DNA from: a virus | Strand: one strand, 5' to 3' | Virus record (IMG/VR): IMGVR_UViG_3300046167_000533 | Coordinates: 1-55,298 of that record | DNA length: 55,298 bases | Shown here: positions 9,666 through 50,848 of the stretch, piece by piece | Layout of the letters: every line of letters starts with the position of its first letter | Position numbering within the stretch: position 1 is the stretch's first letter | Notes under the pieces: model-generated | Database searches by the model: none | Seen by the model: the letters and a program-made list of their open reading frames with translations, nothing else | Told to the model about the DNA's origin: nothing | Position numbers and translations under genes: made by a program

Positions 9666-9686
9666 TATATTAGCAAAGCTAATATA
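9666..9686 (+). promoter_or_regulatory. Operator/promoter O1 for the tail-appendage operon
   Basis: A perfect 21-bp palindrome, TATATTAGC-AAA-GCTAATATA. The right arm holds a TAATAT -10 box (9680-9685), with TTGCGG 17 bp upstream as -35. It precedes the gene at 9711 in a gap that separates lysis from tail genes. It is the best-formed member of the dispersed 19-bp family described in the findings. Confidence 0.8.
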
Positions 9687-9710
9687 CAGCCGATACGTAC
9701 AGGTGAATAC

Positions 9711-10085
9711 ATGGCTTACTCGGACACATTGAATTTAGTAGTGGGGGACACTCTGCCCCAGTTGAACCTTACTCTTAAAGATTCAAATACTGCGGCGGCT
9801 GGGGTGACGCTAGACCCCAATAACAGCGCGACGTGGGCACCCATTGACCTGACGGGCGGTACGGTTCGTATCCGCATTCGCGAGCTTGGCGGTACGACTG
9901 TCAAATCAACTCTCACGGGCACCATAACGGACAATACGGGCGGCGTAGTGCAGACTAATTTTCCTACAGGGACTTTAGACACCGCAGGTACTTTTGAAGC
10001 AGAGGTTGAGATTACTTTTGCTAATGGTGGAATTCAGACCGTAAACGACCTTATAAAACTTAAGGTTAGGGCGGACTTCGACTGA
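9711..10085 (+). CDS. BppU-like N-terminal domain phage structural protein
   Basis: A 124-residue all-beta protein. It begins with LNLVVGDTLPQLNLTLKDS and continues with the pattern of phage baseplate upper-protein (BppU) N-terminal domains: a D...VRIRIRE strand, then TGTFEAEVEITFANG. Such domains connect receptor-binding parts to the virion. First gene after O1, overlapping the next by TGATG. Confident as a virion appendage component; the exact family is from pattern memory only. Confidence 0.6.
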   Translation: MAYSDTLNLVVGDTLPQLNLTLKDSNTAAAGVTLDPNNSATWAPIDLTGGTVRIRIRELGGTTVKSTLTGTITDNTGGVVQTNFPTGTLDTAGTFEAEVEITFANGGIQTVNDLIKLKVRADFD

Positions 10086-11065
10086 TGCCGTCTAAGGTAG
10101 TCGTTCAGTATGTAGACTTAAAGGCGGAGGTCAGCGTAGTTGATCTCCAAGTTGCTGCTGCGTCTATCGAAAGCTCTACGATTACGATTGACCAAGTTAA
10201 CCCTACACTTACCGTTGGGGTCTCAGCGCCCTACGCCTCTATCTCTTACCGTGCATTAAAGAGCGTAACAACTTGGTTGCAGGCTACGCTTACGGACGTG
10301 TTCCTTGATCCCGATCCGAAGTTTGCCGTTCTTTTCGACGGCGTGTCAGTTAGCGATCTTTTCGCACTGCATTATGGCAAAGAAGAGTCAGAGCAAATTG
10401 CGCTTCAAGAACTTGTCGGTTTATCGCTGGCAAAGTCTGTTGTAGACACTGCCACCATCACCGAAGTTATCGACATCTTACTCACGACGATACGCGAGTT
10501 AGAGGAGTCGCTTGTTGTATCAGATACGTTAGCGAGCGCAGTCACGAAGCCTTTGCCAAGTGAAACGACTTCGGTCAGTGACGATGCCGTATTGGAACCA
10601 CAAAAAGGTCTTGATGAGACTATTGGGTTTGAAGATACAACTATACGCGCTACTGGGATTGCTCCAACAGATACGCCTGTTGTTTCTGATTTGGCACCCG
10701 TGCTGGAGCCAGCGTTAGTAAAAGAAGATGCGGTATCGCTGGTGGACGTACAGTCGCTCTCCTTGGGCGTGGTATCAGCCGATACTACTTCTTTAACAGA
10801 TGCTCTTGTTACCGCGTCAGTCAAAAGTTTGGCTGACAGTTTTTCAGTTGCTGAGGTCTTCTCTCGCGTATCTGTTTTCAATGTGCCGCTGTCCGACTCG
10901 TTCACTATTGACGACCTTGCCAACGTAGATGCTCTGGACGTTGATACAACGAGTACCAAAGGCAACGTTTTCAGTGTCACTGACTCCCTCGTCTCGACTC
11001 TCGTATCCACCAACAGTGGCGTGTTAAACGCCAACACTCTTAATCAAGGAACCTTAAATGCTTAA
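10085..11065 (+). CDS. Repetitive tail-associated protein, 326 aa
   Basis: After an N-terminal beta-rich part (about 1-100), the protein is built from degenerate repeats around a Leu-Ser-Asp-Thr / V(S/T)D core (SVSDD, VVSDL, SLTDAL, PLSDSF, SVTDSL). It is acidic and Cys-free. Similar repeats are common in tail appendage proteins of aquatic phages. The gene overlaps both neighbours within a tail operon. Its function beyond a structural role is unknown. Confidence 0.6.
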   Translation: MPSKVVVQYVDLKAEVSVVDLQVAAASIESSTITIDQVNPTLTVGVSAPYASISYRALKSVTTWLQATLTDVFLDPDPKFAVLFDGVSVSDLFALHYGKEESEQIALQELVGLSLAKSVVDTATITEVIDILLTTIRELEESLVVSDTLASAVTKPLPSETTSVSDDAVLEPQKGLDETIGFEDTTIRATGIAPTDTPVVSDLAPVLEPALVKEDAVSLVDVQSLSLGVVSADTTSLTDALVTASVKSLADSFSVAEVFSRVSVFNVPLSDSFTIDDLANVDALDVDTTSTKGNVFSVTDSLVSTLVSTNSGVLNANTLNQGTLNA

Positions 11066-11483
11066 TGAAGATTTGAAGCTGAAAGGGCATCTGGCCATTC
11101 GTTTAAACGACGAGGTAGTGCAAGAAGTCCCTAACTTAGTAGTAACCGCTGGTAAGAACTTCGTAGCTAGTCGGATCAAAGATACGACAGAAGATGCAAT
11201 GACCCACATGGCTATTGGCACGGGCACTGCAGCTGCAGTCGCATCACAGACGACCTTGTCCAGTGAGGGCGACCGAAACGCTTTGACAAGCACCACCGTA
11301 GCTAACAACACCGTGACTTACGTGGCCTCTTTTGGCGCAGGCGAAGGCACAGGTGCTGTTGTAGAAGCTGGTCTGTTCAATGCGTCAAGTGCTGGAACGA
11401 TGTTCTGCCGCACGGTTTTCAGTGTGGTCAACAAAGGCGCGTCAGATTCTATGACGATTACGTGGACGATTACCGTTAGCTAA
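11058..11483 (+). CDS. Phage tail-appendage protein, beta-rich (141 aa)
   Basis: Begins LKLKGHLAIRLNDEVVQEVPNLVVTAGKNFVASRI and carries MAIGTGTAAA and VVEAGLFNA motifs. This pattern is seen in a conserved small tail/appendage protein family usually encoded next to fibres. No membrane or catalytic features. Overlaps the preceding gene by 8 bases and sits just ahead of the S74 fibre. Structural role inferred from family pattern and context. Confidence 0.65.
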   Translation: MLNEDLKLKGHLAIRLNDEVVQEVPNLVVTAGKNFVASRIKDTTEDAMTHMAIGTGTAAAVASQTTLSSEGDRNALTSTTVANNTVTYVASFGAGEGTGAVVEAGLFNASSAGTMFCRTVFSVVNKGASDSMTITWTITVS

Positions 11484-11492
11484 GAGAAGTTT

Positions 11493-12140
11493 ATGGCTGT
11501 TCAGTTTAGTAACAACGCTGCGACTAACCTGTCGGCAGCTATAAGCGCGTCCGCAACCAGTATTACGGTAGCTGACGCTTCTGAGTTCCCTACGCTAAGT
11601 GGTTCTGACTACACCTACGTCACGCTCTCCAATTTATTGGAGACGGTAGTAGAAGTTGTAAAAGTTACCGCTATAAGCGGGAACACGGTGACGGTCGTGC
11701 GCGGTCAGGACAACACAACTGCGTCTGCGTTCGCATCTGGTGACAAGTGTGAGCTTAGGGTCACGGCGGCGTTGCTAAATGATGTTGCGGAACAAGCCGA
11801 TACCAACACCACCTACACCGCAGGCTCTGGTATTTCGTTGTCGGGCACCACGTTCTCAAATGCTGCCCCAGACCAAACAGTGTCGTTGACCGGCTCTGGC
11901 GCTACCAGTGTGAGCGGGACGTACCCCAACTTCACCATCAGCAGCACGGATACCAACACCACCTACACCGCAGGCACAAACCTCAGCCTGTCAGGAACCA
12001 CGTTCAACCTGAACACCAATCTGTCGGGATTGGGAACCATCTCCAGCGGTGCTATTACCAGCTCTGGCAGGGGTACGTTTGATGAGCTAACTCTGACCGG
12101 CGGTTCCGGACAATCTGACCTTCAACGAGGCTTCTGGTGA
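11493..12140 (+). CDS. Tail fibre, N-terminal fragment
   Basis: The 5' piece of the broken fibre gene. It begins AVQFSNNAATNLSAAISASATSITVADASEFP, a common start of virion-anchoring fibre domains, with VTVVRGQDNT at about 67-76. Two copies of DTNTTYTAG(S/T) arise from a 27-bp direct repeat (11799-11825 and 11949-11975). The fibre frame is lost near 12100; the last dozen residues before the stop are out of frame. Biologically this should continue as DNLTFNEASGDW in the +1 frame. Confidence 0.65.
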   Translation: MAVQFSNNAATNLSAAISASATSITVADASEFPTLSGSDYTYVTLSNLLETVVEVVKVTAISGNTVTVVRGQDNTTASAFASGDKCELRVTAALLNDVAEQADTNTTYTAGSGISLSGTTFSNAAPDQTVSLTGSGATSVSGTYPNFTISSTDTNTTYTAGTNLSLSGTTFNLNTNLSGLGTISSGAITSSGRGTFDELTLTGGSGQSDLQRGFW

Positions 12141-16969: not shown

Positions 16970-16988
16970 ATATTAGCGCAGCTGATAT
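16970..16988 (+). promoter_or_regulatory. Operator/promoter O2 (ATATTAGC-GCA-GCTGATAT)
   Basis: A 19-bp palindrome with one mismatch in the right arm, giving a TGATAT -10 and a poor -35 (TTATGT) 17 bp upstream. It lies in the 77-bp gap before the gene at 17019, oriented rightward like its gene. One of the weaker promoters of the family by -35 quality. Confidence 0.65.
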
Positions 16989-17018: not shown

Positions 17019-17267
17019 ATGGCTGAAGAAAGCATCGAACAAGAAGCAACAATTATCGTAGACGACGTCTCTTATCCAATATCCACGTTAAGTGAGTCGA
17101 CTAAGGAACTACTGTCTTTGCATGCTGAAGCAACTCAAGAAATGCTGAAGGCCCGACGGGCGGCGGCTATCCAAGAGATTTCAGTAAAGAGCTTGGCGAC
17201 GATGATTTCGGCTTCTGTAAAAGAAGGCGAACAAACTGATGCTGAATCCGATGTCAACGCAGCGTGA
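17019..17267 (+). CDS. Small conserved phage protein (82 aa)
   Basis: Acidic helical protein: a short beta start (TIIVDDVSYPISTLSEST) followed by long helices. The pattern resembles a small DUF6447-type family seen in aquatic phages, but this is only a resemblance. It is the first gene after O2 and overlaps the membrane protein that follows. Function unknown. Confidence 0.55.
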   Translation: MAEESIEQEATIIVDDVSYPISTLSESTKELLSLHAEATQEMLKARRAAAIQEISVKSLATMISASVKEGEQTDAESDVNAA

Positions 17268-23721: not shown

Positions 23722-23798
23722 TTATTTCAGCCCTTGTCACAGCTACGTTTCCCAGCGAGTATCTGTTTACTGACGCTCATATGACGCACGGAGGCGCA

Positions 23799-24794
23799 AT
23801 GGCAACGATTCGGCAGCGCGGAAAAAGCTGGTACGCAGAGGTACGGCTGAAAGGGAAAGTCTCGCGCAAATCATTCAAGACTAAGGCTGCTGCTAACTCA
23901 TGGGTGCTCCAGACTGAGGGGGCCATAGACAGTAACAAGTGGGTCGATGTTCGCGAATCGCGGGCCGCGCTCATCGAGAACATTATCGACTTACTGATTT
24001 ATTCCTATGAACGGTTTGGGATTCAGGTCGCTGGGCCGAAGCTGTCTGCCCTCACTCAGATCAAAACATACTTCCAAGGCACATCAATTCACCTGCTTAC
24101 AGTAGATGAAGTATTGGACTTCGCTGCGTATCGACGGCGCACGGTTTCAGGAAGCACGTTGCAGAAGCAGATGTACTACTTCAAGCAGGCGATCGACAAC
24201 AGCCGTATCCGTACGGAGGTCGCTGCGGTCGACATTGCGATCGAGGAGTTAAAGCGCAAGAAAATAATCAAAGGCAGCAGACTTAGGGACAGGCGTTTGG
24301 AGCCTGGAGAGTATGAGTCGTTAATGCGTGAGGCCGAGGGACATTGGATTGGCCCAGTCATCGACTTTGCGCTAGCTACGGGTATGCGTCAGGGCGAAAT
24401 CTGGGCGTTTAAGTGGTCTGACATAGACGAAAAAGCAGGCACACTTACCTCAATGCGAAAAGACAAAGACGCTGAATCAGGTAAATCCAAGCATGAAATA
24501 CCGCTGTTAGAGGGCGTGAGAGAGGCGCTCCAGCGTGCACAAAACTTAGTTCCGCAAGGGCCAAAGCTTGTTCCTGTAAAGCAAGCGGCTTCAATTTCAG
24601 ACAAGTTTGCGAAACTTACGAAAGCCGCCAACATCGTGGACTTAAAGTTCCATGATCTGCGCCATGAAGCTATTAGTCGGATGTTTGAACGCGGTATGAC
24701 TATCGAGCAAGTGCGTGTTGTTTCAGGTCATCGCTCGTTTGAACAGTTGGCACGATACGTCAACTTGCGGGCTGGGGATCTAACCGGCTTGTAA
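23799..24794 (+). CDS. int: Tyrosine-recombinase integrase
   Basis: 331 residues from the ATG at 23799, chosen because GGAGG lies six bases upstream. It has an N-terminal arm-binding/SAM-like region (TIRQRGKSWYAEVRLKGK...) and a C-terminal catalytic domain with Arg in ATGMRQGEIWAFKW, HDLRHEA, GHR, and the nucleophile Tyr in ARYVNL. All of R-H-R-H-Y are present, so it should be active. It would recombine attP with a host tRNA-Ser gene. Its 3' end overlaps the convergent excisionase-like gene by 35 bases. Confidence 0.92.
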   Translation: MATIRQRGKSWYAEVRLKGKVSRKSFKTKAAANSWVLQTEGAIDSNKWVDVRESRAALIENIIDLLIYSYERFGIQVAGPKLSALTQIKTYFQGTSIHLLTVDEVLDFAAYRRRTVSGSTLQKQMYYFKQAIDNSRIRTEVAAVDIAIEELKRKKIIKGSRLRDRRLEPGEYESLMREAEGHWIGPVIDFALATGMRQGEIWAFKWSDIDEKAGTLTSMRKDKDAESGKSKHEIPLLEGVREALQRAQNLVPQGPKLVPVKQAASISDKFAKLTKAANIVDLKFHDLRHEAISRMFERGMTIEQVRVVSGHRSFEQLARYVNLRAGDLTGL

Positions 24795-24972
24795 AAAACT
24801 CAGCGACCATTGGTGTCGGAAACAGGTACTTTTTGCCGTGTTTAACGTGGGGGATTTTTAAAGTACCTCGGTAGATTTGCTGGTAGATGCTTTCTTTTTT
24901 GATTCTCATTAATGTGGCTAATTCTTCAAGATCCATGAAGGGGCCGAACCGTTCCAGTAGTAGTTGTTCCAA
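24760..24972 (-). CDS. Excisionase-like HTH protein (recombination directionality factor candidate)
   Basis: 70 residues from a TTG start, or about 58 from an internal ATG (MDLEELATLM). It has the HTH_17/excisionase fold pattern: FMDLEELATLMRIKKESIYQQIYRGTLKIPHVKHGKKYLF. Frame-consistent coding character extends upstream of the TTG (ALKWRIAL), so the true start is unsettled. It converges on and overlaps int, and O3 just upstream has the strongest -35 of the family. A role in excision is inferred from fold and context. Confidence 0.6.
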   Translation of the reverse strand: MEQLLLERFGPFMDLEELATLMRIKKESIYQQIYRGTLKIPHVKHGKKYLFPTPMVAEFFTSRLDPQPAS

Positions 24973-25013: not shown

Positions 25014-25032
25014 ATATTACTTATACTAATAT
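25014..25032 (-). promoter_or_regulatory. Operator/promoter O3 for the excisionase-like gene
   Basis: Palindrome variant ATATTACT-TAT-ACTAATAT. Read leftward it gives TAATAT as -10 with TTGACG, 5 of 6 to consensus, exactly 17 bp upstream. It sits between the end of the repressor gene and the excisionase-like gene, so repression here would keep the prophage integrated. Confidence 0.75.
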
Positions 25033-25050: not shown

Positions 25051-25593
25051 TTAGCTAAGTCGGTTGATACCCGAATGGACGGCGAGTATTGGGTACTTTT
25101 TCTTGATTTTTGCTTTAGCAGGAAGCTCGTCGTGCGAGCATATGCGGCCTTCTTTGTCTCCCTTTAGGACAACAATGTATCGAGCTGCATCTAGCCCATC
25201 GTCTTCACATACCTCTAGTACAGCATCTGGCCAGCGAGCTGAAGAATCCAGTTCAACAAAGAAAGAATCCCTTTTCCGTTTGAAATGGACTTTGTTGTTA
25301 GTTTTACGCGTCATGTTTTTTGAGCTGTAGCGCGTCGTGATGGTCAGTACTTCTGGCAAGTGCTCGGTGATGTTTGGATCAATTTCATGCGGGTCAACTT
25401 CCATGAAATTAGCAAGCTTGATGATGGCTGCTGGGTTCATCTCGGTGATGTTGTTTAGGTACTGGGAAATTGCACCTTGTGTCCACCCAAGTTTTTTTGC
25501 CGCTTCGATTTGTGTGTATTGCGGTTTGATTTTTTTGTTCCAAAGCTTGCGTAAATTAGTCACGCTGTTTGGTACTTGAGTGTTTTTCGTCAT
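25051..25593 (-). CDS. CI-like repressor, XRE-type HTH (180 aa)
   Basis: From the ATG at 25593 (an earlier in-frame start at 25638 would lie deeper in the upstream gene). Residues about 22-65 form a classic HTH: YTQIEAAKKLGWTQGAISQYLNNITEMNPAAIIKLANFMEVDP. The C-terminal part is beta-rich (VLKGDKEGRICSHDELPAKAKIKKKYPILAVHSGINRLS). It resembles a repressor effector domain but shows no obvious Ser/Lys self-cleavage pair. It lies next to int/xis, and three operator half-sites lie just upstream. The most likely lysogeny repressor and reader of the dispersed palindrome; both are inference. Confidence 0.7.
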   Translation of the reverse strand: MTKNTQVPNSVTNLRKLWNKKIKPQYTQIEAAKKLGWTQGAISQYLNNITEMNPAAIIKLANFMEVDPHEIDPNITEHLPEVLTITTRYSSKNMTRKTNNKVHFKRKRDSFFVELDSSARWPDAVLEVCEDDGLDAARYIVVLKGDKEGRICSHDELPAKAKIKKKYPILAVHSGINRLS

Positions 25594-28544: not shown

Positions 28545-28563
28545 ATATTAGCAGTACTAATAT
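28545..28563 (-). promoter_or_regulatory. Operator/promoter O5 for the helicase operon
   Basis: ATATTAGC-AGT-ACTAATAT. Read leftward: TTGAGC, 17 bp, TAATAT. A further overlapping half-site (ATATTAGT at 28560-28567) extends it, the same arrangement as at O8. Confidence 0.75.
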
Positions 28564-30860: not shown

Positions 30861-30879
30861 TAATATTAGCACAACTAAT
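30861..30879 (-). promoter_or_regulatory. Operator/promoter O6 for the Cas4/RecB-like gene
   Basis: ATATTAGC-ACA-ACTAATAC, one mismatch in the last base. Leftward -10 is TAATAT; the -35 is poor (TGTAGA at 17 bp). Lies 33 bp before the nuclease start. Confidence 0.65.
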
Positions 30880-30886
30880 ACTTGAT

Positions 30887-33409: not shown

Positions 33410-33428
33410 ATATTAGCATGGCTAATAT
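33410..33428 (-). promoter_or_regulatory. Operator/promoter O7 for the primase-helicase
   Basis: Perfect ATATTAGC-ATG-GCTAATAT. Leftward -10 TAATAT; no convincing -35 at 17 bp (TACTTA). Lies 23 bp before the primase start and just past the csrA stop. Confidence 0.75.
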
Positions 33429-36177: not shown

Positions 36178-36196
36178 ATATTACTGTTACTAATAT
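36178..36196 (-). promoter_or_regulatory. Operator/promoter O8 for the polymerase-csrA operon
   Basis: ATATTACT-GTT-ACTAATAT, with an extra overlapping half-site ATATTAGC (36193-36200). Leftward: TTGAGT, 17 bp, TAATAT. The TACTAATATTAG..CTCAAGA flank is shared with O5. Confidence 0.75.
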
Positions 36197-41498: not shown

Positions 41499-41687
41499 TC
41501 AAGAGGCGCTGGGCTTTGGATTCCAAAAACCGATGTCCTCGCTGAAATGCGACTCAGCAAATATATTAGCATCGCTAATATCGTCAGCCAAGTTTAAGAC
41601 GTCCACGGACTGAGGCCGTGCCTCCGCGTGATCGATTACTGAATCCAGTAGAGACCAACGCTCTACGTTGAGATTAAGTTCTTTCAT
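41499..41687 (-). CDS. Small acidic protein with an operator inside its gene (62 aa)
   Basis: Start at 41687 with AGGAG upstream (KELNLNVERWSLLDSVIDHAEARPQSVDVLNLADDISDANIFAESHF). Acidic, single domain. Codons for the DISDANIF part are the O9 palindrome, so this coding region also serves as promoter for the next gene. Modest confidence that it is translated. Confidence 0.45.
   Translation of the reverse strand: MKELNLNVERWSLLDSVIDHAEARPQSVDVLNLADDISDANIFAESHFSEDIGFWNPKPSAS
41563..41581 (-). promoter_or_regulatory. Operator/promoter O9 for the 40594-41391 gene
   Basis: Perfect ATATTAGC-ATC-GCTAATAT. Leftward: TTGGCT, 17 bp, TAATAT. Lies within a small upstream reading frame, leaving a leader of about 165 bases. 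Confidence 0.75.
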
Positions 41688-41711
41688 ATGATTGCTCCTA
41701 CGCAATTGAGA

Positions 41712-42407: not shown

Positions 42408-42464
42408 ATGGCCCTCCAATTGATGATAGTCATTAATGACCGTGATTCGTGGTTCGCGGTCAGT

Positions 42465-42774
42465 GTGTAGCAGGAACGGGGGGTGTGTAGCAGCTTGGTA
42501 GCAGCTTTGGTAGCAGGTTCAAAACACACAAAATGTAATGAAAACAATGATGTAGCAGTGTGTAGCATGTGTAGCAGGTAAATTTGAGTTGAAGTTCGAT
42601 TTAGAAAAAAAAACGGTGTTTTTGAAAAACGATCTGAACAAGTCAAAAAAGCTGCTACACATGCTACACATAGGGTGTTTAGACCTAAGTGGTTGAATAC
42701 AAAGGAAAACTTTGTGTAGCAGAATCGGAAAAATAGCTGCTACACACCTGCTACACACTTCAAAGCTGCTACAC
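42465..42774. repeat. Iteron-like array, candidate replication origin
   Basis: Thirteen copies of a 8-9 bp unit, GTGTAGCAG or one-base variants, fill most of the non-coding gap 42408-42776. Seven direct copies lie at 42465-42577. Six more lie at 42652-42774, five of them inverted and one direct (42714). Between the clusters is an A/T-rich tract (42589-42650). Two iteron clusters around an AT-rich core recall the ori/crr pair used by P4-type primase-helicases, and this phage encodes such an enzyme. Function as origin is inferred. Confidence 0.6.
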
Positions 42775-42776
42775 AC

Positions 42777-42962
42777 CTAAATCTGTAACAGACCGCGAGC
42801 GTGATCCAAGAGCCGCGCTTCACGAACCGAGAGCTTTGTTCTCCCGAAGTACTTGTCGAAGATCTTCCAACAGGCATCTCGGAGGTAATCGTTGTCGGTT
42901 ACTTCGTGGCAGTCATCGATGCTCAAGAGCATGCGTTCTACTGGGGTGTAGAATAGTTTCAT
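42777..42962 (-). CDS. Small hypothetical protein (61 aa)
   Basis: ATG preceded by CGGAGAAAG. The product KLFYTPVERMLLSIDDCHEVTDNDYLRDACWKIFDKYFGRTKLSVREAR... is helical and charged. Its stop borders the iteron array. No motif recognised. Confidence 0.5.
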   Translation of the reverse strand: MKLFYTPVERMLLSIDDCHEVTDNDYLRDACWKIFDKYFGRTKLSVREARLLDHARGLLQI

Positions 42963-42974
42963 GGGCTTTCTCCG

Positions 42975-43163
42975 TTACAGTTTCGAGGTGTGATAGTGAT
43001 AGGCCTTGAACGACGCTTCTCGGGGATCGAACCCCATACGTAGATAGCGACGATATGCCTTACGGATTGCTGCCCGCTGGGGCGCGGATCGCGGATCGCG
43101 AGCCTCCTGGCGAGCGAGCGGCGTACGGGCGAAGTGTTGTTCGAACATGTCTGACGTGGTCAT
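42975..43163 (-). CDS. Small Arg-rich hypothetical protein (62 aa)
   Basis: AAGGAG eight bases before the ATG. Arg-rich helical sequence (ARTPLARQEARDPRSAPQRAAIRKAYRRYLRMGFDPREASFKAYHY). Overlaps the stop of the gene upstream by TGA/ATG, so coupled. Function unknown. Confidence 0.5.
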   Translation of the reverse strand: MTTSDMFEQHFARTPLARQEARDPRSAPQRAAIRKAYRRYLRMGFDPREASFKAYHYHTSKL

Positions 43164-43498
43164 TACACTTCTCCTTGCTTAGCGGCTTTGTAAGCGGCGG
43201 CCTGCTCAGCGCGTTTCTGCTGGATCAGCAGTGCAGCTTCGGTCGGTGGCAGTTGAGCGCGCATGGGCTTCGCGGATCGTGGTGCTTGGGGCGCGGCCCG
43301 TACTCGCTTCCACCCGTTGAGTAGCAGCGCGCCTTGTGCGTTGATGAACTTGATCCACTGATTAGCGTCTCTACGTGACGGGGCGTTCAGTGCCCACACG
43401 CTGCCGTTCTTTAGCTGAGCGTAGATTGTTGCACTGCCTTTACTCTTGCCGAGGGAAAGCTGTACTGGGTTACCGATAACGTTGTTCAACTGTGACAT
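43163..43498 (-). CDS. First leftward early protein (111 aa)
   Basis: Start at 43498, with AAGGAG nine bases upstream. Residues 1-60 form a compact beta-rich domain (IGNPVQLSLGKSKGSATIYAQLKNGSVWALN) and the rest is a basic Ala/Arg-rich tail. It is the first gene of the leftward arm, next to the divergent region, so it is probably among the earliest made. No operator of the dispersed family lies directly before it. Confidence 0.5.
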   Translation of the reverse strand: MSQLNNVIGNPVQLSLGKSKGSATIYAQLKNGSVWALNAPSRRDANQWIKFINAQGALLLNGWKRVRAAPQAPRSAKPMRAQLPPTEAALLIQQKRAEQAAAYKAAKQGEV

Positions 43499-43588
43499 CT
43501 CTGTCTCCTTGATTGTGATTGGACGAACCATTCATCCAATTCATAACGACACCGACGACGAGCGACGCTAGGAGCGAGGCGTTTTTCC

Positions 43589-43625
43589 GACAAGGTTCCA
43601 CAGATGAATACGGGACAAGGTTCCA
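43589..43625 (+). repeat. 12-bp direct repeat in the divergent region
   Basis: GACAAGGTTCCA occurs at 43589-43600 and 43614-43625, 25 bp apart (about 2.4 helical turns). In non-coding DNA just upstream of the terminase unit; could be a protein-binding or packaging-recognition element. Confidence 0.5.
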
Positions 43626-43637
43626 ACACTGCGGATC

Positions 43638-43669
43638 GGGGTACGGGGGGCGCGATGGGCCAAGGGGGG
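43638..43669 (+). other. G-quadruplex motif next to an A/T-rich tract
   Basis: Four G runs of 4, 6, 3 and 6 separated by 3, 6 and 4 bases satisfy the G4 pattern. It is followed about 25 bases later by a run of A7/T6/A3/T7 (43697-43728) of strong bending or melting potential. It lies in the 295-bp gap 43499-43793 between the divergent arms, which otherwise holds no supported gene. It may serve replication, packaging or transcription. Confidence 0.55.
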
Positions 43670-43765
43670 AGATAGTCCGTGAGCGATACAGACGTAAAAA
43701 TGAAAAAAATTTTTTGAAATTTTTTTGCAGGAACATGCAGTTAAGCGTGTATGCTCCGGTCCGTA

Positions 43766-43784
43766 TTAATAGTGACGCTAATAT
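43766..43784 (+). promoter_or_regulatory. Operator/promoter O10 for the HNH gene
   Basis: Right arm GCTAATAT is perfect; the left arm (TTAATAGT) is degenerate. The -10 TAATAT ends nine bases before the ATG at 43794, so transcription would begin almost at the start codon. No good -35. Confidence 0.55.
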
Positions 43785-43793
43785 TCATACGTT

Positions 43794-44264
43794 ATGCCAG
43801 CAACCACTCTCGTATGTTCAGGCTGCGGTTCCGCAAAGCCAAAAAAGGAATTTGAGCGCAACCGAGTTCAGTGCCAGGCGTGTCGCACGACCGCAGCCCA
43901 AAAACGCATATCCGCGAGCTACAAATCGTACTTGCGGAACCTCTATTCAAAATCCAAGAACTCCAACAAACGCGATCCCCGAGCCGCGAACCGTGATTGG
44001 CACATAACGTATGAAGATTTAGTTGCGAAGTGGACTGAGCAAGGTGGGCGCTGCGCGCTTTCCGGTGTATACCTAACGCATCACGTTGATGGCTCTGGTG
44101 TAAAAGACAACAACGCGTCAATCGACAGGATTTCACAAGAAGTTGGCTACACCGCTGCAAACACGCAGCTGGTTTGTTATCGCGTCAACATAATGAAGCA
44201 CAATTTGCCTGAAGATATGTTCTTTTGGTGGATCAAGACCATCGGTGATTTCACTTGTGATTAA
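43794..44264 (+). CDS. HNH endonuclease
   Basis: 156 residues. Zinc-ribbon-like CSGCG...CQAC near the N-terminus (8-11, 27-30), then the HNH core WTEQGGRCALSGVYLTHH...NASIDRISQEVGYTAANTQLVCYRVNIMKH. The fused order GGRCxLSG...ASIDRIxxxxGY...N is that of the phage/bacterial HNH family. Phages often place an HNH gene beside terminase, where it helps packaging cleavage; that is likely here. It heads the rightward arm and would have almost no leader on its mRNA. Confidence 0.75.
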   Translation: MPATTLVCSGCGSAKPKKEFERNRVQCQACRTTAAQKRISASYKSYLRNLYSKSKNSNKRDPRAANRDWHITYEDLVAKWTEQGGRCALSGVYLTHHVDGSGVKDNNASIDRISQEVGYTAANTQLVCYRVNIMKHNLPEDMFFWWIKTIGDFTCD

Positions 44265-44283
44265 ATATTAGTGACGCTAATAT
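44265..44283 (+). promoter_or_regulatory. Operator/promoter O11 for the terminase-portal operon
   Basis: ATATTAGT-GAC-GCTAATAT with TTGTGA, 17 bp, TAATAT. The -10 ends six bases before the ATG at 44290, so the predicted mRNA is leaderless. Confidence 0.75.
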
Positions 44284-44289
44284 GCCGGA

Positions 44290-44556
44290 ATGAGCGAAGT
44301 AGAAGTCATCACTATTGAAGGTCTTGACGCCGCAATCATCGGGTCAACCATTCGCGATGGCCGTGAAGTCCTCGCATATGACATCGACAAAGCTGTCGAA
44401 ATACTTGTGTCCCACGGGTACTCCGAGGAGTACGCGGAAGAATGGATCACGGAGATGTGTTCGAACGAGTTCGACGGATCACCTGCATTTGTGTATGTAA
44501 ATGAAGAACCAGAGTTTCATGGAACAGGCACCCCAATCGGAGTCACAGTCCACTGA
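44290..44556 (+). CDS. Small acidic hypothetical protein (88 aa), probably leaderless mRNA
   Basis: Acidic alpha/beta protein (VEVITIEGLDAAIIGSTIRDGREVLAYDIDKAVEILVSHGYSEEYAEEWITEM...). No family firmly known. It starts at or within a base of the predicted transcription start from O11, and overlaps the terminase small subunit by up to 56 bases. First gene of the packaging operon. Confidence 0.6.
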   Translation: MSEVEVITIEGLDAAIIGSTIRDGREVLAYDIDKAVEILVSHGYSEEYAEEWITEMCSNEFDGSPAFVYVNEEPEFHGTGTPIGVTVH

Positions 44557-45034
44557 CTTAGTGAGCGAACATACGGAGTTTCAATCGCACCTGCCCTACA
44601 TGGGCCTGACGCGCGGTTCACTGACCATGCAGCAGGAAAAGCTGGTCTCGCTTATCAGTTCAGGAATGACGATCGCGGCCGCAGGTCGCGGCGCTGGGTA
44701 CTCTTCGCCCCAAGCAACCTACGAAGCCGCAAAACGGCCCTCTGTGGCACAAGCCATCGAGTATTTCCGTCAAGAAATGCGTGAAGAGGTGAAGTTTACC
44801 AATCAGCACGCGCACATGATGTACATGGAGGCGTACAACTCGTCGGCAAACGCCACCGAGATGAAAAACACCACCGATTCCCTGGTCAAGCTGCACGGTT
44901 TGGCCGCGCCGGAAAACGCCACGCAGGTAAACATCAGCATCAACGGCACCAAGCAGCTAGAGCGCATGAGTGACGAGGATCTGCTGAAGATTGCAGGTAA
45001 GGATCTGGACTACCTCGAACCTAAGAGCGATTAA
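44501..45034 (+). CDS. terS: Terminase small subunit
   Basis: 177 residues from the first ATG, or 171 from ATG 44519; neither has a strong ribosome site. MTMQQEKLVSLISSGMTIAAAGRGAGYSSPQATYEAAKRPSVAQAIEYFRQE is a helix-turn-helix DNA-recognition region of small terminases. A central helical part follows, then a C-terminal tail (ERMSDEDLLKIAGKDLD) that would contact the large subunit. Immediately upstream of terL with stop/start overlap. Confidence 0.75.
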   Translation: MKNQSFMEQAPQSESQSTDLVSEHTEFQSHLPYMGLTRGSLTMQQEKLVSLISSGMTIAAAGRGAGYSSPQATYEAAKRPSVAQAIEYFRQEMREEVKFTNQHAHMMYMEAYNSSANATEMKNTTDSLVKLHGLAAPENATQVNISINGTKQLERMSDEDLLKIAGKDLDYLEPKSD

Positions 45035-46677
45035 TGACAGATGTCATAAAGATCGAATGCGTACGCTGCAAAGCGTCTCATCCCGAGACTTTGTACTCGG
45101 GAGACGACCGTCTCTGCGTGTACTGCAAATCTGATATCGCGGAGCAAGAACCGCAGCCCGCGAGCCCCGAACCGGAGGTCGAGCAGGAATCCACTGTCGA
45201 AGAGAAGGCACGCGCGGAACTTGCTCTACGGTTCCTGACTCGTCGTAAGTTACTGCCTTTCGTCGAGCGGTTTAACCCAGATTATCAAGCCGGTTGGGTA
45301 CATAAGGACATATGTAAACGATTAGAGGAGTTTTCCCGAGATGTTGCAGCAAAGAAGTCGCCTCGACTCATGCTCTTCATGCCCCCACGGCACGGTAAGA
45401 GCACGCTTGCATCGGTTGGATTCCCAGCTTGGCACCTTGGGCGACATCCTGAGCATGAGTTTATTAGTTGTTCTTACTCGGGTTCACTCGCAATGGGCTT
45501 CAGCCGCAAGGTTCGTGGCCTCCTTCGCGAGGAAGGATATAAGTCTGCCTTCAAGACCCGCCTCGACCCTCAGTCTCAGTCTGCTGAAGCGTGGCTTACT
45601 ACTGTTGGTGGTGGTTACGTTGCTGCCGGCGTGGGCGGCGGTATTACTGGTAAAGGGGCTCACATCCTCGTTATTGACGATCCGGTAAAGAACCGAGACG
45701 ACGCGGAATCACAAAACGCGCGAGACAGTGCCTGGGACTGGTATACGTCAACCGCTTACACACGTCTCGCGCCAGGCGGGGGCGTGTTGGTAATTCTGAC
45801 GCGCTGGCATGACGACGACTTGGCGGGTCGTCTGCTTAAAGCTGCCGCAGATAACGGCGAGCAGTGGGAAGTTGTGAACTACCCAGCCAGAGCCGAGGTG
45901 GACGAGGAGTTTCGTCAGCAGGGTGAAGCCCTCCACCGCGAGCGATACGACGAAGAAGCGCTCGCACGGATTGAAAAAGCGGTTGGGCCCAGAGACTGGT
46001 CAGCACTGTACCAGCAGAACCCCGTAGCCGATGACGGTGACTACTTCACCAGAGACATGATCCAGTACTACGACCGCGACGAGGTCGACGAGGATCGCAT
46101 GCGTTACTACTGCGCGTGGGACTTGGCGATCGGTAAGAACGACCGGAACGACTACACAGTCGGAATTGTCGTTGGCGTCGACGAGTACGACCAGATGTTC
46201 GTTATGGACATGGTGCGCGGACGGTTTGACGGCTTTGAACTGGTTGAGCAGATCCTCGATCTGTACGAATCGTGGAAGCCGTCGATCATCGGGATTGAGA
46301 AAGGACACATCGAGATGGCGCTCGGGCCGTTCCTAGAAAAGCGCGTCCGTGAGCGTGGGCTCTACGAGGCGTATTTCAAAGATTTGAAAACTGGCCGCAG
46401 GGACAAGGAGGCACGCGCCAGAGCAATCCAAGGCCGGATGCAACAGGGCATGGTCTTCCTGCCCAGAGATGAGGAATTTACTGGGCCATTAGTCGCAGAA
46501 CTTCTGCGCTTCCCGAATGGGGTCCACGACGACCAAGTAGATGCCTTGGCTTGGATCGGTCTGATGATGACCGAGTTCAGCACCTTCGTAGAGAAGATTG
46601 AACACGTCCCAAGCTGGAGAGACCGGCTCCCTGGATTACTTAAGGGCGAACGCAATAAATCAGCAATGAGCGCATAA
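45034..46677 (+). CDS. terL: Terminase large subunit
   Basis: 547 residues. An unusual N-terminal zinc-ribbon-like CVRCK...CVYCK (about 4-30) precedes the motor. Walker A PPRHGKST (117-124), Walker B HILVIDDP (about 210-217), coupling TRWHDDD (about 256-262). Nuclease: CAWDLAIGKNDRNDYTVG (first Asp about 362), IGIEKG, and GVHDDQVDALAW (about 496-507). All ATPase and RNase H-like nuclease residues are present. It packages DNA into the prohead; family type suggests headful or cos packaging cannot be told from sequence alone. Confidence 0.93.
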   Translation: MTDVIKIECVRCKASHPETLYSGDDRLCVYCKSDIAEQEPQPASPEPEVEQESTVEEKARAELALRFLTRRKLLPFVERFNPDYQAGWVHKDICKRLEEFSRDVAAKKSPRLMLFMPPRHGKSTLASVGFPAWHLGRHPEHEFISCSYSGSLAMGFSRKVRGLLREEGYKSAFKTRLDPQSQSAEAWLTTVGGGYVAAGVGGGITGKGAHILVIDDPVKNRDDAESQNARDSAWDWYTSTAYTRLAPGGGVLVILTRWHDDDLAGRLLKAAADNGEQWEVVNYPARAEVDEEFRQQGEALHRERYDEEALARIEKAVGPRDWSALYQQNPVADDGDYFTRDMIQYYDRDEVDEDRMRYYCAWDLAIGKNDRNDYTVGIVVGVDEYDQMFVMDMVRGRFDGFELVEQILDLYESWKPSIIGIEKGHIEMALGPFLEKRVRERGLYEAYFKDLKTGRRDKEARARAIQGRMQQGMVFLPRDEEFTGPLVAELLRFPNGVHDDQVDALAWIGLMMTEFSTFVEKIEHVPSWRDRLPGLLKGERNKSAMSA

Positions 46678-46679
46678 CG

Positions 46680-48815
46680 ATGGCTAAGACACGAAAGATT
46701 GACCCCGCAAAAGAAGAAGAGATTACACGCACCCAGTGGGCGCGTTATGAACGCGCTCGGGATAACGGCCACCTCGATTACGTGGAGATGGCACTCAAAT
46801 GCGACGAGTATTACCAAGGCGACCAGTGGGACCCAGATGATCAGGCTGTGCTTGAGAATGAGGGCCGCCCTGCTCTCACGATTAATACTATTTTGCCGAC
46901 CATTAATACAATTCTGGGCGAACAGTCGACTCGCCGCGCAGACATTAAGTTCAAGCCCCGTCGCGGCGGCGACGAAGAAGTAGCACACACGCTGTCCAAG
47001 CTGTACATGCAGATTGCTGACAGCAACAAGCTGGACTGGGTCGAACAGCAAGTCTTCAGTGACGGCCTGATTATGGACGGTCGCGGATACTTTGACGTTC
47101 GCATGGACTTCAGCGATCACGTTGAAGGTGAGATCCGCATCACGGCTAAAGACCCACTGGACATTCTTATCGACCCAGATGCTAAGGACGCCGACCCAAA
47201 GACTTGGAACGAGGTGTTTGAGTCTAAGTGGATGACGCTCGACGAGATCGAGGAGCTATATGGCGAGGACAAGGCGGAGCGCCTGCTGTTCGTCGCTGAG
47301 AACGGTATGAGCTTCGGCCCTGATTCGGTCGAATATCAGGAAACCCGCTTCGGTGATACCGAAACAAACGACGATTACTTCGGCGCAGGCGTCCCTGGGG
47401 ACGAGGAGTACCGTAACGTTAAGGCACTGCGCGTCGTCGAGCGCCAACACAAGAAGCTGCACCGTGCATCTTTCTTCGTCGACCGACTGACTGGCGACCA
47501 AAGGCAGTGCCCTTCCGAGTGGGGCGAGGCGAAATGTAAAAAATTCGCCAAGAAATACGATATGGAGCTCATATCCAAGGTCATCCGCAAGGTTCGGTGG
47601 ACTGTTACGTGCGATCAGGTGGTCTTACACGACGACTGGTCTCCCTATGACCAGCTGACCATCGTCCCGTTCTTCTGCTATTTCCGTAGAGGGCGTCCGT
47701 TTGGCGCAATCCGCAACCTGTTGTCCCCACAGGAGCAGCTGAACAAGATCGCGAGCCAAGAACTGCACATCGTGAACACCACCGCGAACAGCGGATGGAT
47801 GGTTGAGAGCGGATCGCTCGTTGGTATGACGGCCGATGACCTCGAAGAGCACGGCGCAGAGACCGGATTGGTGCTTGAGTACAATCGAGGAACGAATCCC
47901 CCATCGAAAATACAAGCCAATCAGATCCCTACTGGCCTCGATCGTATTGCACAGAAAGCAGCAGCGAATATTCAGGCCATTTCGGGCATCAACGACTCAA
48001 TGTTAGGCACAGATAGTGCTGAAGTGTCTGGAATTGCTATCCAAGCTAAGCAAAATCGCGGCGCAATCATGATTCAGGTGCCTTTGGATAACTTAGCGAA
48101 GGCTAGACAGTACCTAGCAGAGAAGATCCTGAACCTGATCCAGACTTTCTACACCGAAGAGCGCGTTATTCAGGTCACAAACGAAGAAGACCCGCTACAG
48201 CCGCGTGAGCCACTGGTTTTGAACACAATGTCGCCCGAGGGAGACATCATCAACAACCTCACGCTGGGCGAATACGACGTAATTGTCTCCACTGCCCCTG
48301 CGCGGGACAGCTTCGACGAGACTCAGTTCGCAGAAGCACTGAGTTTACGCCAAGCAGGTGTCGCAATACCTGACGACGCAATCATTCAGTACAGCCATCT
48401 AGTGAAGAAGCAGGAACTGGCCAAACGTATACGTCAAATGACCGGTCAAGAGCCACCAACACCAGAACAGGCACAGGTAATGCAGCAACAGCAGATGCTG
48501 GCGATGCAAAACCTGCAGCTGGAGACCATGAAGCTCCAAGCTGAAGTCGAAAAACTCCAGTCCGAAGCGGCTGTAAACGTCGCCAAGGTACAGGAAGTAG
48601 CGGAAGTGAATCCGCAAGCGCGTCTGGCTGAGCTACAAGCGAAGCTCCAGATGAACCAAGAGCAGCTAGCCCTCCGCAGAGAGCTTTCTGCTGCTACCAA
48701 CGAAATCCGCCAAGGGCAAAGTGAGACTACTGCCGCAGCCAAGATAGCTGCGGAGGCTATGAAGCAAGGTAGAAGCGCTACGCGCACAGCTGGACCAACC
48801 CAACCAACCCAATAG
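46680..48815 (+). CDS. Portal protein, P22-like
   Basis: 711 residues, the usual P22-portal length. The N-terminal YYQGDQWDPDDQAVLENEGRPALTINTILPTINTILGEQ is typical, with later DPLDILIDPDA and GRPFGAIRNLLSPQEQLNKIASQELHIVNTTANSGW. The C-terminal 120 residues are a Gln/Glu-rich helical barrel (QQQQMLAMQNLQLETMKLQAEVEKLQSE). It forms the dodecameric channel for DNA and connects to the adaptors at 52962-54332. Confidence 0.9.
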   Translation: MAKTRKIDPAKEEEITRTQWARYERARDNGHLDYVEMALKCDEYYQGDQWDPDDQAVLENEGRPALTINTILPTINTILGEQSTRRADIKFKPRRGGDEEVAHTLSKLYMQIADSNKLDWVEQQVFSDGLIMDGRGYFDVRMDFSDHVEGEIRITAKDPLDILIDPDAKDADPKTWNEVFESKWMTLDEIEELYGEDKAERLLFVAENGMSFGPDSVEYQETRFGDTETNDDYFGAGVPGDEEYRNVKALRVVERQHKKLHRASFFVDRLTGDQRQCPSEWGEAKCKKFAKKYDMELISKVIRKVRWTVTCDQVVLHDDWSPYDQLTIVPFFCYFRRGRPFGAIRNLLSPQEQLNKIASQELHIVNTTANSGWMVESGSLVGMTADDLEEHGAETGLVLEYNRGTNPPSKIQANQIPTGLDRIAQKAAANIQAISGINDSMLGTDSAEVSGIAIQAKQNRGAIMIQVPLDNLAKARQYLAEKILNLIQTFYTEERVIQVTNEEDPLQPREPLVLNTMSPEGDIINNLTLGEYDVIVSTAPARDSFDETQFAEALSLRQAGVAIPDDAIIQYSHLVKKQELAKRIRQMTGQEPPTPEQAQVMQQQQMLAMQNLQLETMKLQAEVEKLQSEAAVNVAKVQEVAEVNPQARLAELQAKLQMNQEQLALRRELSAATNEIRQGQSETTAAAKIAAEAMKQGRSATRTAGPTQPTQ

Positions 48816-48824
48816 GACTTTGAT

Positions 48825-49853
48825 ATGAGCACCAAAGACGAATCAACTGAAGACAAGCCGCTGGAATTTGACGTAATGCCAGGGGCTGATCGCCCCGAAG
48901 AGGACGACACGCCTGCGCTTGACCTAAGTTTTACGCAGGAAGAGGAACCAGAAGCCGTTGTCGAAGAGGAACCCACTGTCGCTGAAGCCGAAGAATCGGA
49001 AGAAGAACCTGAAGCCGAAGATTCCGAAGAGGACGTGGCCGAAGATGAAGCCGAAGAAACCGAAGCAGCTGTCGAGGAGGTAGAGGAAGCCGAAGAAGCG
49101 CCGGAAGAACCTGCCCCCGAGCCTAAGAAAGCGACTAAAAGCAAAATGGTTCCTAAAGCCCGCCTCGATGAGGTGCTTGCAAAGCAGAAAGCCCTACAGA
49201 AGCAGCTTGATGAGATAAATGCTGCCAAAGAAAAAGCTGAAGAAGCGCCCGAAGCCTACGATTTCGATGAGAAAGAAGTCGAATACCAGAACATGGTGCT
49301 CGATGGGGAGACAGAAAAAGCTGTAGCTCTGAGACGAGAGATTAGAAAGGCGGAGCGCGAGCAGCTTGAGTACGAAATGCGCCAAGAAATGACGCAAACC
49401 GTAACTCAAGACCGCCAAATGAACGCGCTTCAGCAGGCTGCGACCGCTATGGAAGAAGCGTATCCCGTTTTCGACCGTAACTCAGCGGAGTTCAACGAGG
49501 ATTACACGAACGAAGTCCTCGAACTGCGTGATGCGTTCATGTCCACCGGCTATGACGTAGTAGACGCGCTGTCAAAAGCCGTCAAATACGTCGTGAAAGA
49601 CCACGATTTAGATCAAACGGAAGAAAGCGCACCGAGTTTGGCTGGGAAAGCGCCGTCTGTAGACGAAGTTGCCAAGAAACGCGCGCAAGTGAGCAAAAAA
49701 CTGAAGGCCGCAGAAGCCCAACCACCTGAATTGCCAGGTGAAAGTTCCTCGGTTCATGGAGAGAAAGGTCTAGACGTCTCCAACATGACCGAAGAAGAGT
49801 TTGATGCGCTGCCTGAAGCCACCCTGAGACGCCTACGCGGCGATATTTTGTAA
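48825..49853 (+). CDS. Scaffolding protein
   Basis: 342 residues. Residues 1-100 are extremely acidic (runs of Glu/Asp broken by Ala, Pro, Val), followed by a basic/coiled helical part (KARLDEVLAKQKALQKQLDEINAAKEKAEE) and a helical C-terminus with short basic end. This composition and the place between portal and capsid identify a phage head scaffold. It is present in the prohead and leaves or is lost on maturation. Confidence 0.8.
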   Translation: MSTKDESTEDKPLEFDVMPGADRPEEDDTPALDLSFTQEEEPEAVVEEEPTVAEAEESEEEPEAEDSEEDVAEDEAEETEAAVEEVEEAEEAPEEPAPEPKKATKSKMVPKARLDEVLAKQKALQKQLDEINAAKEKAEEAPEAYDFDEKEVEYQNMVLDGETEKAVALRREIRKAEREQLEYEMRQEMTQTVTQDRQMNALQQAATAMEEAYPVFDRNSAEFNEDYTNEVLELRDAFMSTGYDVVDALSKAVKYVVKDHDLDQTEESAPSLAGKAPSVDEVAKKRAQVSKKLKAAEAQPPELPGESSSVHGEKGLDVSNMTEEEFDALPEATLRRLRGDIL

Positions 49854-49865
49854 GGAGCAGCCTAA

Positions 49866-50156
49866 ATGGCGAGTGAAAGAGACCCACGATTAGCCCGAGC
49901 AGGTGTCTCGGGCTTCAATAAACCTAAGCGGACGCCTAATCACCCGAAAAAATCGCACATTGTTGTGGCTAAAGAGGGAGATAAGATCAAAACCATACGG
50001 TTTGGTGAGCAAGGGGCTAAGACTGCGGGCAAACCCAAGGCTGGGGAAGGCGACAAGATGCGTAAGAAGCGCGCCAGCTTCAAAGCACGCCACGCTAAGA
50101 ACATATCCAAGGGCAAAATGAGCGCGGCCTATTGGGCCAATCGCGTGAAGTGGTGA
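49866..50156 (+). CDS. Small basic phage protein with conserved KARHAKNIxKGKMSAAYWA motif (DUF6321-like)
   Basis: 96 residues, strongly basic. The C-terminal DKMRKKRASFKARHAKNISKGKMSAAYWANRVKW is a conserved short motif found beside capsid genes in aquatic phages. AGGAG lies ahead of the ATG. May be a packaged basic protein or head cofactor; no function proven. Confidence 0.6.
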   Translation: MASERDPRLARAGVSGFNKPKRTPNHPKKSHIVVAKEGDKIKTIRFGEQGAKTAGKPKAGEGDKMRKKRASFKARHAKNISKGKMSAAYWANRVKW

Positions 50157-50160
50157 TCTG

Positions 50161-50586
50161 ATGGCTAGAACAGACGAACCTAAATGGAAACGCATTGTCG
50201 CGTCGGTTAAGGCGGGCTCAGCTGGCGGAAAACCTGGCCAGTGGTCAGCCCGTAAGGCGCAAATCGCGACGCAGCGCTACAAAAAGTCAGGTGGCGGTTA
50301 TAAGGGCCCCAAAACAAAGGCTCAGAAGTCGCTGTCTAAGTGGACTAAAGAGGAATGGGGGACAAAGTCCGGTAAAAACTCAACTCAAGGAAGTAAAGCG
50401 ACAGGTGAAAGGTATCTCCCGAAGAAGGCTCGAAAAGCTTTATCAGACAAGGAGTACGCTGCCACTTCCCGAAAGAAGCGGGAAGACACAAAGAAAGGCA
50501 AGCAGTTCTCAAAGCAGCCAAAAAAGATAGCGAAGAAGACAGCGCGGGTTCGAAAAGCGAGCCACCGCCCTAGCCGACGCAGTTGA
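50161..50586 (+). CDS. Small basic protein, DUF5872-like
   Basis: 141 residues. LSKWTKEEWGTKSGKNS...TGERYLPKKARKALSDKEYAATSRKKREDTKKGKQFSKQPKKIAKKTARVRKAS follows the DUF5872 pattern, a family I recall from phages and also large eukaryotic viruses. Highly basic, so DNA contact inside the head is plausible. Begins four bases after the previous stop. Confidence 0.6.
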   Translation: MARTDEPKWKRIVASVKAGSAGGKPGQWSARKAQIATQRYKKSGGGYKGPKTKAQKSLSKWTKEEWGTKSGKNSTQGSKATGERYLPKKARKALSDKEYAATSRKKREDTKKGKQFSKQPKKIAKKTARVRKASHRPSRRS

Positions 50587-50604
50587 TTTAGGTGTTGCAT
50601 ACGT

Positions 50605-50623
50605 ATATTAGTATCGCTAATAT
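50605..50623 (+). promoter_or_regulatory. Operator/promoter O12 for the capsid gene
   Basis: ATATTAGT-ATC-GCTAATAT with TTGCAT, 17 bp, TAATAT. It starts a transcript with a leader of about 220 bases before the capsid ATG. Confidence 0.8.
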
Positions 50624-50629
50624 TCTATG

Positions 50630-50848
50630 TATATTCGTCCATCAGAGCGATATCTGATCGGCCCGTAGCCGTAAAAAACGTAACCATCGCCTGCACAAGG
50701 CGTTAAACCTGCCGAGGTCGCTCTCGTTAAAACGCGCTAGTTCGTCGTCCCACGACACGGGAACACGGATTAGCCGCTCCAGTAAGTCGGCTAAACGAGC
50801 AGGCTTTATTAGCTGCGCTATTAATACGACAATTTTATGGAGGCCATC
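50630..50848 (+). other. Long hairpin-rich leader of the capsid mRNA
   Basis: A non-coding stretch with a row of perfect short stems: ATCAGA/TCTGAT (50641-50658), CGCCT/AGGCG (50688-50702), CGAG/CTCG (50713-50726), GTCGT/ACGAC (50744-50756), and TTAGCCG/CGGCTAA (50770-50794). It could stabilise the capsid mRNA, be a CsrA or other regulator target, or hold a small RNA. No start-codon frame of note lies in it. Confidence 0.5.
50806..50824 (+). promoter_or_regulatory. Degenerate operator O13 near the capsid start
   Basis: TTATTAGC-TGC-GCTATTAA, three mismatches to the family. No usable -35. It lies 24 bp before the capsid ATG and may be a second, roadblock-type site. Confidence 0.4.

What the first reader, a model, noticed from the sequence alone, without database searches (positions are those of the whole stretch)
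9666..50824. One promoter/operator cassette repeated through the whole genome
The palindrome ATATTAGY-N3-RCTAATAT occurs at 9666, 16970, 25014, 28545, 30861, 33410, 36178, 41563, 43766, 44265, 50605 and, weaker, 50806. Nearly every site lies just upstream of a transcription unit and in the same orientation as its genes, with the right arm forming TAATAT. Seven have TTGnnn exactly 17 bp upstream of that box (TTGCGG, TTGACG, TTGAGC, TTGAGT, TTGGCT, TTGTGA, TTGCAT). So the operator sits in the promoter spacer and -10. Excisionase, replication, terminase, capsid and tail operons all share it. Most temperate phages use a cascade; here a single regulator could hold every stage directly, closer to L5-like stoperators but fused to promoters.
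Basis: partly seen in the sequence, partly recalled or inferred. Interest (0 to 1): 0.92.

Follow-up and report, generated by a model that had tools for sequence, protein, structure and literature searches.

The report
One repressor operator in every promoter
This marine phage, and dozens of relatives, carry the same palindromic switch built into the promoter of nearly every gene block from replication to capsid, most likely so that one phage repressor can hold the whole virus silent inside its host without a chain of regulators.

Summary
ATATTAGY-N3-RCTAATAT occurs 14 times at <=3 mismatches (0.32 expected); 12 sites lie in the 5.7% of the genome that is non-coding.

Relatives turn it into a regulon. 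Among 247 non-redundant sites, TTG sits at spacer 17 on the gene side in 99 and on the other side in 8 (p 1e-25). The palindrome is therefore fused to sigma70-type promoters. An RNA hairpin is unlikely: the innermost pair does not covary (p 0.79).

The likely regulator is the lambda-CI-like HTH protein at 25051-25593. Its gene, xis and int usually travel together; relatives that lost them usually lack the motif (77/6/5/14, p 5e-9). One clade has an operator changed on both arms and an altered recognition helix. A Motiliproteus prophage holds nearly all its host genome's copies. The second proposed regulator, 39491-39970, is not conserved.

Single repressors with scattered operators are known (P1, L5, SPbeta). 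New here is a symmetric operator fused to early and late promoters alike, terminase and capsid included, apparently without a late activator. Binding and transcription starts are untested.

The parts
9667..9685 (+). operator/promoter cassette upstream of structural gene 9711-10085; -35 TTGCGG 9657-9662
   Evidence: 0 mismatches, intergenic
16970..16988 (+). operator/promoter cassette upstream of structural gene 17019-17267; -35-like TTATGT, -10 TGATAT
   Evidence: 1 mismatch, intergenic
25014..25032 (-). operator/promoter cassette of xis (leftward); TTGACG-17-TAATAT
   Evidence: 1 mismatch, between xis and repressor gene
28545..28563 (-). operator/promoter cassette of the helicase..gp34..nuclease..repressor operon; -35 TTGAGC
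   Evidence: homologous position in many relatives
30863..30881 (-). operator cassette upstream of 30079-30828 (PD-(D/E)XK-type nuclease by inspection); no -35 hexamer
   Evidence: 1 mismatch, intergenic
33410..33428 (-). operator cassette upstream of primase-helicase block starting about 33387; no -35 hexamer
   Evidence: 0 mismatches, intergenic
36178..36196 (-). operator/promoter cassette upstream of the DNA polymerase/csrA block starting about 36153; -35 TTGAGT
   Evidence: 1 mismatch
41563..41581 (-). operator/promoter cassette of the leftward operon starting at 41391; -35 TTGGCT, leader about 171 nt
   Evidence: 0 mismatches
43766..43784 (+). operator cassette upstream of 43794-44264, in a divergent gap; no -35 hexamer
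   Evidence: 2 mismatches, recurrent in relatives
44265..44283 (+). operator/promoter cassette of the small protein/terS-like/terL/portal operon; -35 TTGTGA; 6 nt before the start codon
   Evidence: 0 mismatches, recurrent in relatives
50605..50623 (+). operator/promoter cassette of the major capsid gene; -35 TTGCAT; 213-nt leader
   Evidence: 0 mismatches, recurrent in relatives
50806..50824 (+). weak second operator-like site in the MCP leader, 201 bp after the first
   Evidence: 3 mismatches; a second site near 190-200 bp recurs in L005, L006, L007, L034, L036, L042, L054, L057, L068, L079
25682..25741 (-). three RCTAATAT half-sites in direct repeat (starts 27 and 25 bp apart) upstream of the repressor gene; proposed autoregulatory region (approximate bounds)
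   Evidence: sequence read; half-sites
25051..25593 (-). proposed repressor: lambda-CI-like HTH plus beta-rich C-terminal domain
   Evidence: PF01381 1.6e-8; fold; co-occurrence
24760..24972 (-). excisionase-like HTH_17 protein
   Evidence: PF12728 5.1e-8; co-occurs with repressor
23781..24794 (+). tyrosine integrase, no operator upstream in this genome
   Evidence: phrog_1 2.8e-39

Best explanation
The cassette is a sigma70-type promoter (TTGnnn, 17 bp, TAATAT) whose spacer and -10 form a symmetric operator for the phage's own lambda-CI-like repressor (25051-25593). In the prophage, repressor dimers occupy the operators of the xis, replication, terminase, capsid and tail units and block RNA polymerase directly at each of them. 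When repressor is absent or lost, host RNA polymerase can read all these promoters at once, with timing set by promoter strength, operator affinity and gene order rather than by a protein cascade. The repressor gene is the last gene of one of the repressed operons and has extra half-sites about 100 bp upstream, so it probably also regulates itself. Shown by computation: the motif, its promoter geometry, its conservation, its link to the repressor/int/xis module. Inferred: binding, repression, start sites, absence of a cascade, autoregulation.
For: Enrichment and intergenic placement. 176 hits at <=3 mismatches versus 10 for the reversed pattern in the terminase loci. TTG at spacer 17 on the gene side 99/247, opposite side 8/247, other spacers at background. 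Six relatives with the motif all carry int, xis and repressor orthologues (repressor 35-69% identity); the 56-kb relative G015 has none of the three and no excess of motif over control. 102 helicase-anchored loci: 77 both, 14 neither, 6 and 5 discordant, Fisher p 5e-9. Three of the six repressor-positive, motif-negative loci carry a two-arm variant, ATAGTAGY-N3-RCTACTAT, with repressor helix KQSNFSHY in place of the usual [ST]QGAxSxY. Motiliproteus coralliicola C34: 15 of 17 hits in 4.2 Mb lie within a 52-kb stretch that holds a related prophage with an int and a repressor homologue. Parendozoicomonas prophage: variant ATATWGGY-N3-RCCWATAT, 20 sites versus 4 control. 103 of 106 newly fetched loci with the full cassette encode window-protein relatives. 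The N-terminal domain matches lambda CI (TM 0.76 to 3kz3) and the best full-length hits are lambda repressors.
Against: No binding or start-site data. With phylogeny removed, only 6 well-supported independent pairs remain; on average 4 agree and 1 disagrees, sign test not significant. L245, L246, L254, L255 keep 2-3 sites without a detected repressor, and L215 and L216 have a repressor but no recognised operator. About 60% of the 247 sites lack an exact TTG at -35. The operator-change/helix-change link rests on one clade and is confounded with descent.
Confidence: 0.83

Rival explanations
1. The repeats are phage-specific promoters bound by an activator or alternative sigma/RNA polymerase; the palindrome is part of a promoter recognition element and no lysogenic repressor is involved.
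For: Promoter geometry is clear and late genes share it. Small HTH proteins such as 39991-40230 (sigma70_r4-like, below cut-off) exist.
Against: The -35/-10 geometry is ordinary sigma70; the only regulator found to track the motif is the repressor of the int/xis module; the 39491 and 39991 families are found in 6 and 7 loci; relatives that lost the repressor mostly also lost the motif though they keep the same operons.
Confidence: 0.07
2. The palindrome acts as an RNA hairpin in 5' leaders (processing or translational control).
For: An 8-bp inverted repeat with a 3-base loop just before start codons would fold if transcribed (sequence).
Against: The expected start site is downstream of it; the innermost pair shows no covariation (51 C-A mismatches among 232, p 0.79) and no arm position shows clear compensatory change; position relative to TTG is fixed at 17 bp.
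Confidence: 0.03
3. The repressor binds the sites, but late operons are in practice governed by another, undetected activator (P1-like), so the late operators are only a back-up lock.
For: P1 has 22 operators yet its late genes need Lpa (PMC8546580). Some late sites lack a TTG -35 (43766).
Against: The terminase and capsid cassettes have TTG-17-TAATAT like the early ones, and no activator candidate conserved across the family was noticed.
Confidence: 0.25

Closest known systems
Phage P1 C1 repressor and its dispersed operators
   Same: One repressor, 22 operators spread over the genome, controls many units; the operator also contains CTAATA (PMC8546580)
   Different: P1 operator is a 17-bp asymmetric sequence and late genes are switched by the activator Lpa; here the operator is symmetric and forms the spacer and -10 of the terminase and capsid promoters themselves
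Mycobacteriophage L5 / TipsytheTRex repressor and stoperators
   Same: More than twenty repressor sites over the whole genome, oriented with transcription (PMC9283540)
   Different: Those are 13-bp asymmetric sites read by a monomer and many are proposed to stop elongation between genes; here sites are symmetric and coincide with promoters
SPbeta MrpR and SPBRE
   Same: Master repressor bound at repeated elements in promoter regions of a prophage (ten ChAP-seq peaks, PMC10516654)
   Different: MrpR has a tyrosine-recombinase fold and a 15-bp motif; this repressor is an HTH_3 protein
Phage lambda CI
   Same: HTH domain fold and symmetric operators bound by dimers (PMC9283540)
   Different: Lambda CI acts at two control regions of the early switch and later genes follow by a cascade (general knowledge); here the operator is at about eleven units
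Phage phiC31 repressor and conserved inverted repeats
   Same: Palindromic repressor sites repeated through a phage genome (from memory, no paper found)
   Different: From memory, those lie mainly at early promoters; not tested here

Membership tests
Single-repressor, scattered-operator temperate phage (P1/L5/SPbeta kind) | same operator at many separate transcription units, far above chance | tested here: met
Single-repressor, scattered-operator temperate phage (P1/L5/SPbeta kind) | operator tied to a phage repressor gene | tested here: met
   co-occurrence; supported by one clade with altered operator and helix
Single-repressor, scattered-operator temperate phage (P1/L5/SPbeta kind) | repressor binds the operator and maintains lysogeny | not testable with these tools
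   needs EMSA, ChAP-seq or a lysogen; a prophage with sites was found
L5-type stoperator system | asymmetric 13-bp site | tested here: not met
   sites are symmetric 8+3+8
L5-type stoperator system | sites that stop elongation within operons | tested here: inconclusive
   nearly all sites coincide with promoters; 50806 lies in a transcribed leader
Lambda-CI-type repressor | HTH_3 DNA-binding domain of the lambda CI fold | tested here: met
   PF01381; TM 0.76 to 3kz3
Lambda-CI-type repressor | self-cleaving S24 C-terminal domain (Ser-Lys dyad) | tested here: not met
   no Pfam S24 match for window-type repressors; no invariant Ser or Lys in the C-terminal domain; weak S24 match only in the Parendozoicomonas homologue
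P1-type late control | dedicated late activator | tested here: inconclusive
   no candidate conserved across relatives was found, but absence is not proof

The most novel reading that the evidence does not exclude
A widespread family of marine temperate phages runs without a regulatory cascade: one repressor directly gates early, replication, packaging and capsid promoters through the same promoter-embedded operator, and timing after induction is set only by promoter/operator strength and by the repressor's own return.
Probability: 0.45. Interest if true: 0.8.

Novelty: new variant of a known kind. Interest (0 to 1): 0.64.

Why it matters
It gives a large, mostly uncultured family of marine phages a readable regulatory code: operator counts predict which members are temperate, operator type may predict immunity groups, and repeated loss of the repressor module beside loss of operators shows how temperate phages may turn lytic. 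It also poses a clean question: can a phage order its life cycle without an activator cascade? A cultured Motiliproteus coralliicola C34 lysogen offers a place to test it.

Tried and rejected
Second candidate regulator 39491-39970 and the small HTH 39991-40230: in only 6 and 7 loci, rejected. RNA-hairpin reading: no covariation. Known RNA families: none in the window or MCP leader. Search with the repressor sequence alone found only one relative; a profile built from helicase-anchored loci was needed. No near relative among sequenced phages; the closest by terminase, Aeromonas phage phiA008 (49%), has no motif, and no repressor, int or xis match. Promoter retention without operator in repressor-less relatives was looked at but gave only a few cases: G015 keeps TTGACC-17-TAATAT at one homologous place without the left arm, and the wider count is too small to conclude. 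The independent-contrast test on the tree had too few pairs. The C-variant operator (ATAATAC) did not go with a helix change. Literature searches for a phage with the same arrangement returned none. One paper query was malformed and gave nothing.
Full report
Observation. The motif ATATTAGY-N3-RCTAATAT was scanned on the window: 14 hits at up to 3 mismatches against 0.32 expected from dinucleotide shuffles and 0.35 from an order-4 Markov model. Twelve of the 14 lie in non-coding DNA, which is 5.7% of the genome; the two exceptions (3713, 33735) are 3-mismatch hits inside genes. All seven quoted TTG hexamers are at a spacer of exactly 17 from the right-arm hexamer. The site at 50806 is real but weak and has no promoter hexamer.

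What kind of genome. The window is a 55-kb virus record with terminase, portal, capsid, polymerase, helicase, primase and integrase genes, an HTH_17 excisionase-like protein and a CsrA homologue. It has no near match among deposited phages for the 40000-55298 stretch, but over 590 stretches in viral contigs encode a related terminase, and the motif recurs in them at corresponding places: 176 hits against 10 for the reversed pattern. Six large relatives have 5-22 sites each at up to 3 mismatches, mostly between genes.

Promoter geometry. Sites with up to two mismatches from all loci were oriented by the flanking genes only and made non-redundant (247). Upstream of the palindrome, and only on the gene side, a TTG appears at spacer 17 in 99 sites; on the opposite side in 8; other spacers stay low on the gene side (p 1e-25). 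A T-rich stretch precedes it. Since the palindrome is symmetric, this one-sided signal is independent evidence that these are promoters pointing at the genes, with the operator filling the spacer and -10.

DNA operator, not RNA hairpin. In these sites the innermost Y/R pair is combined at random (69 C-G, 51 C-A, 67 T-G, 45 T-A; p 0.79), and no arm position shows clear compensatory change. Exact half-sites occur at few spacings: the canonical one 176 times, and one with 10 bp more, about a helical turn, 13 times, nearly all about 100 bp upstream of the repressor gene; the reversed control gave 2 in all. The window instead has three direct half-sites there. These upstream half-sites lie in the coding sequence of the preceding nuclease gene, so part of their conservation could be protein-driven.

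Which regulator. All six large relatives with the motif carry orthologues of int, xis and the HTH protein 25051-25593; the relative G015, of similar size, has none of the three and no excess of motif, though it keeps terminase, capsid, helicase and polymerase. In 102 loci anchored on the helicase gene, repressor and motif agree in 91 (77 both, 14 neither) and disagree in 11. Repressor absence arises several times on the helicase tree, but only 6 well-supported independent pairs are available and the sign test on them is not significant. Of the exceptions, L219-L221 have a changed operator, ATAGTAGY-N3-RCTACTAT, altered on both arms, and a recognition helix KQSNFSHY instead of [ST]QGAxSxY; the related group L206-L214 is mixed in operator type, with helix TQSAFSHY. 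The 39491-39970 protein is in 6 loci only.

Prophage evidence. In the isolate genome of Motiliproteus coralliicola C34, 15 of the 17 hits (<=2 mismatches, 4.2 Mb) fall within 52 kb that encode a distant relative of this phage with helicase, polymerase, terminase, capsid, int and repressor homologues. A Parendozoicomonas haliclonae prophage of the same family has its own operator variant, ATATWGGY-N3-RCCWATAT, 20 sites against 4.

The protein. AlphaFold2 with 40 homologues gives a confident model (pLDDT 90, pTM 0.71): a lambda-CI-like HTH (TM 0.76 to 3kz3) and a beta-rich C-terminal domain; the best full-length matches are lambda repressors, with a poor overall superposition. No invariant Ser or Lys is present in the C-terminal part, so LexA-type self-cleavage is unlikely and the induction signal is unknown.

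Mechanism and limits. The best reading is a prophage lock in which each lytic unit, early or late, is shut at its own promoter by the same repressor. The repressor gene ends an operon that carries the operator (28545), which with the half-sites suggests self-limitation. That early and late promoters are alike suggests no late activator is needed, but this is inference, as are all statements on binding and timing. The 44265 and 43766 boxes are 6-9 nt from the start codon, which would make those messages leaderless if the starts are as expected.

Comparison. P1 C1 has 22 dispersed asymmetric operators but its late genes depend on Lpa (PMC8546580). L5-type repressors bind more than twenty 13-bp asymmetric sites as monomers, partly to stop elongation (PMC9283540). 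MrpR of SPbeta binds ten promoter regions (PMC10516654). The present system shares their logic but differs in a symmetric operator that forms part of the promoter and is used at terminase and capsid promoters as well. It is a new variant of a known kind.

Noticed in passing
window 50624-50836: The leader of the major capsid gene is a conserved structured RNA: 14 relatives, 76% mean identity, 44 predicted pairs with 12 showing two-sided changes; no Rfam match. A similar leader is visible in the repressor-less relative G015.
   Followed up: partly
window 33432-33626: Phage-encoded CsrA homologue (PF02599), conserved in relatives with and without the repressor.
   Followed up: no
upstream of repressor genes, e.g. 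L148:10709-10737, L100:10336-10364: Half-sites ATATTAG and CTAATAT spaced 10 bp wider than in the canonical operator, almost only upstream of the repressor gene.
   Followed up: partly
window 50605 and 50806; L005, L034, L036, L042, L054, L068, L079: Paired sites at the capsid gene 187-190 or 200-201 bp apart, near whole numbers of helical turns, which would suit DNA looping.
   Followed up: no
window 36203-37324 and 38061-39059: MoxR-type AAA ATPase and DUF2201 metallopeptidase/VWA pair inside the replication region.
   Followed up: no
window 33735-33753; G001, G002, G008, G009 homologous place: A weak operator-like sequence recurs about 121 bases before the end of the polymerase gene, upstream of csrA.
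   Followed up: no
L177 12812-13072 and relatives L171-L182: Truncated repressor (HTH only) without int or xis and with only 1-2 operators left, a possible step from temperate to lytic.
   Followed up: partly
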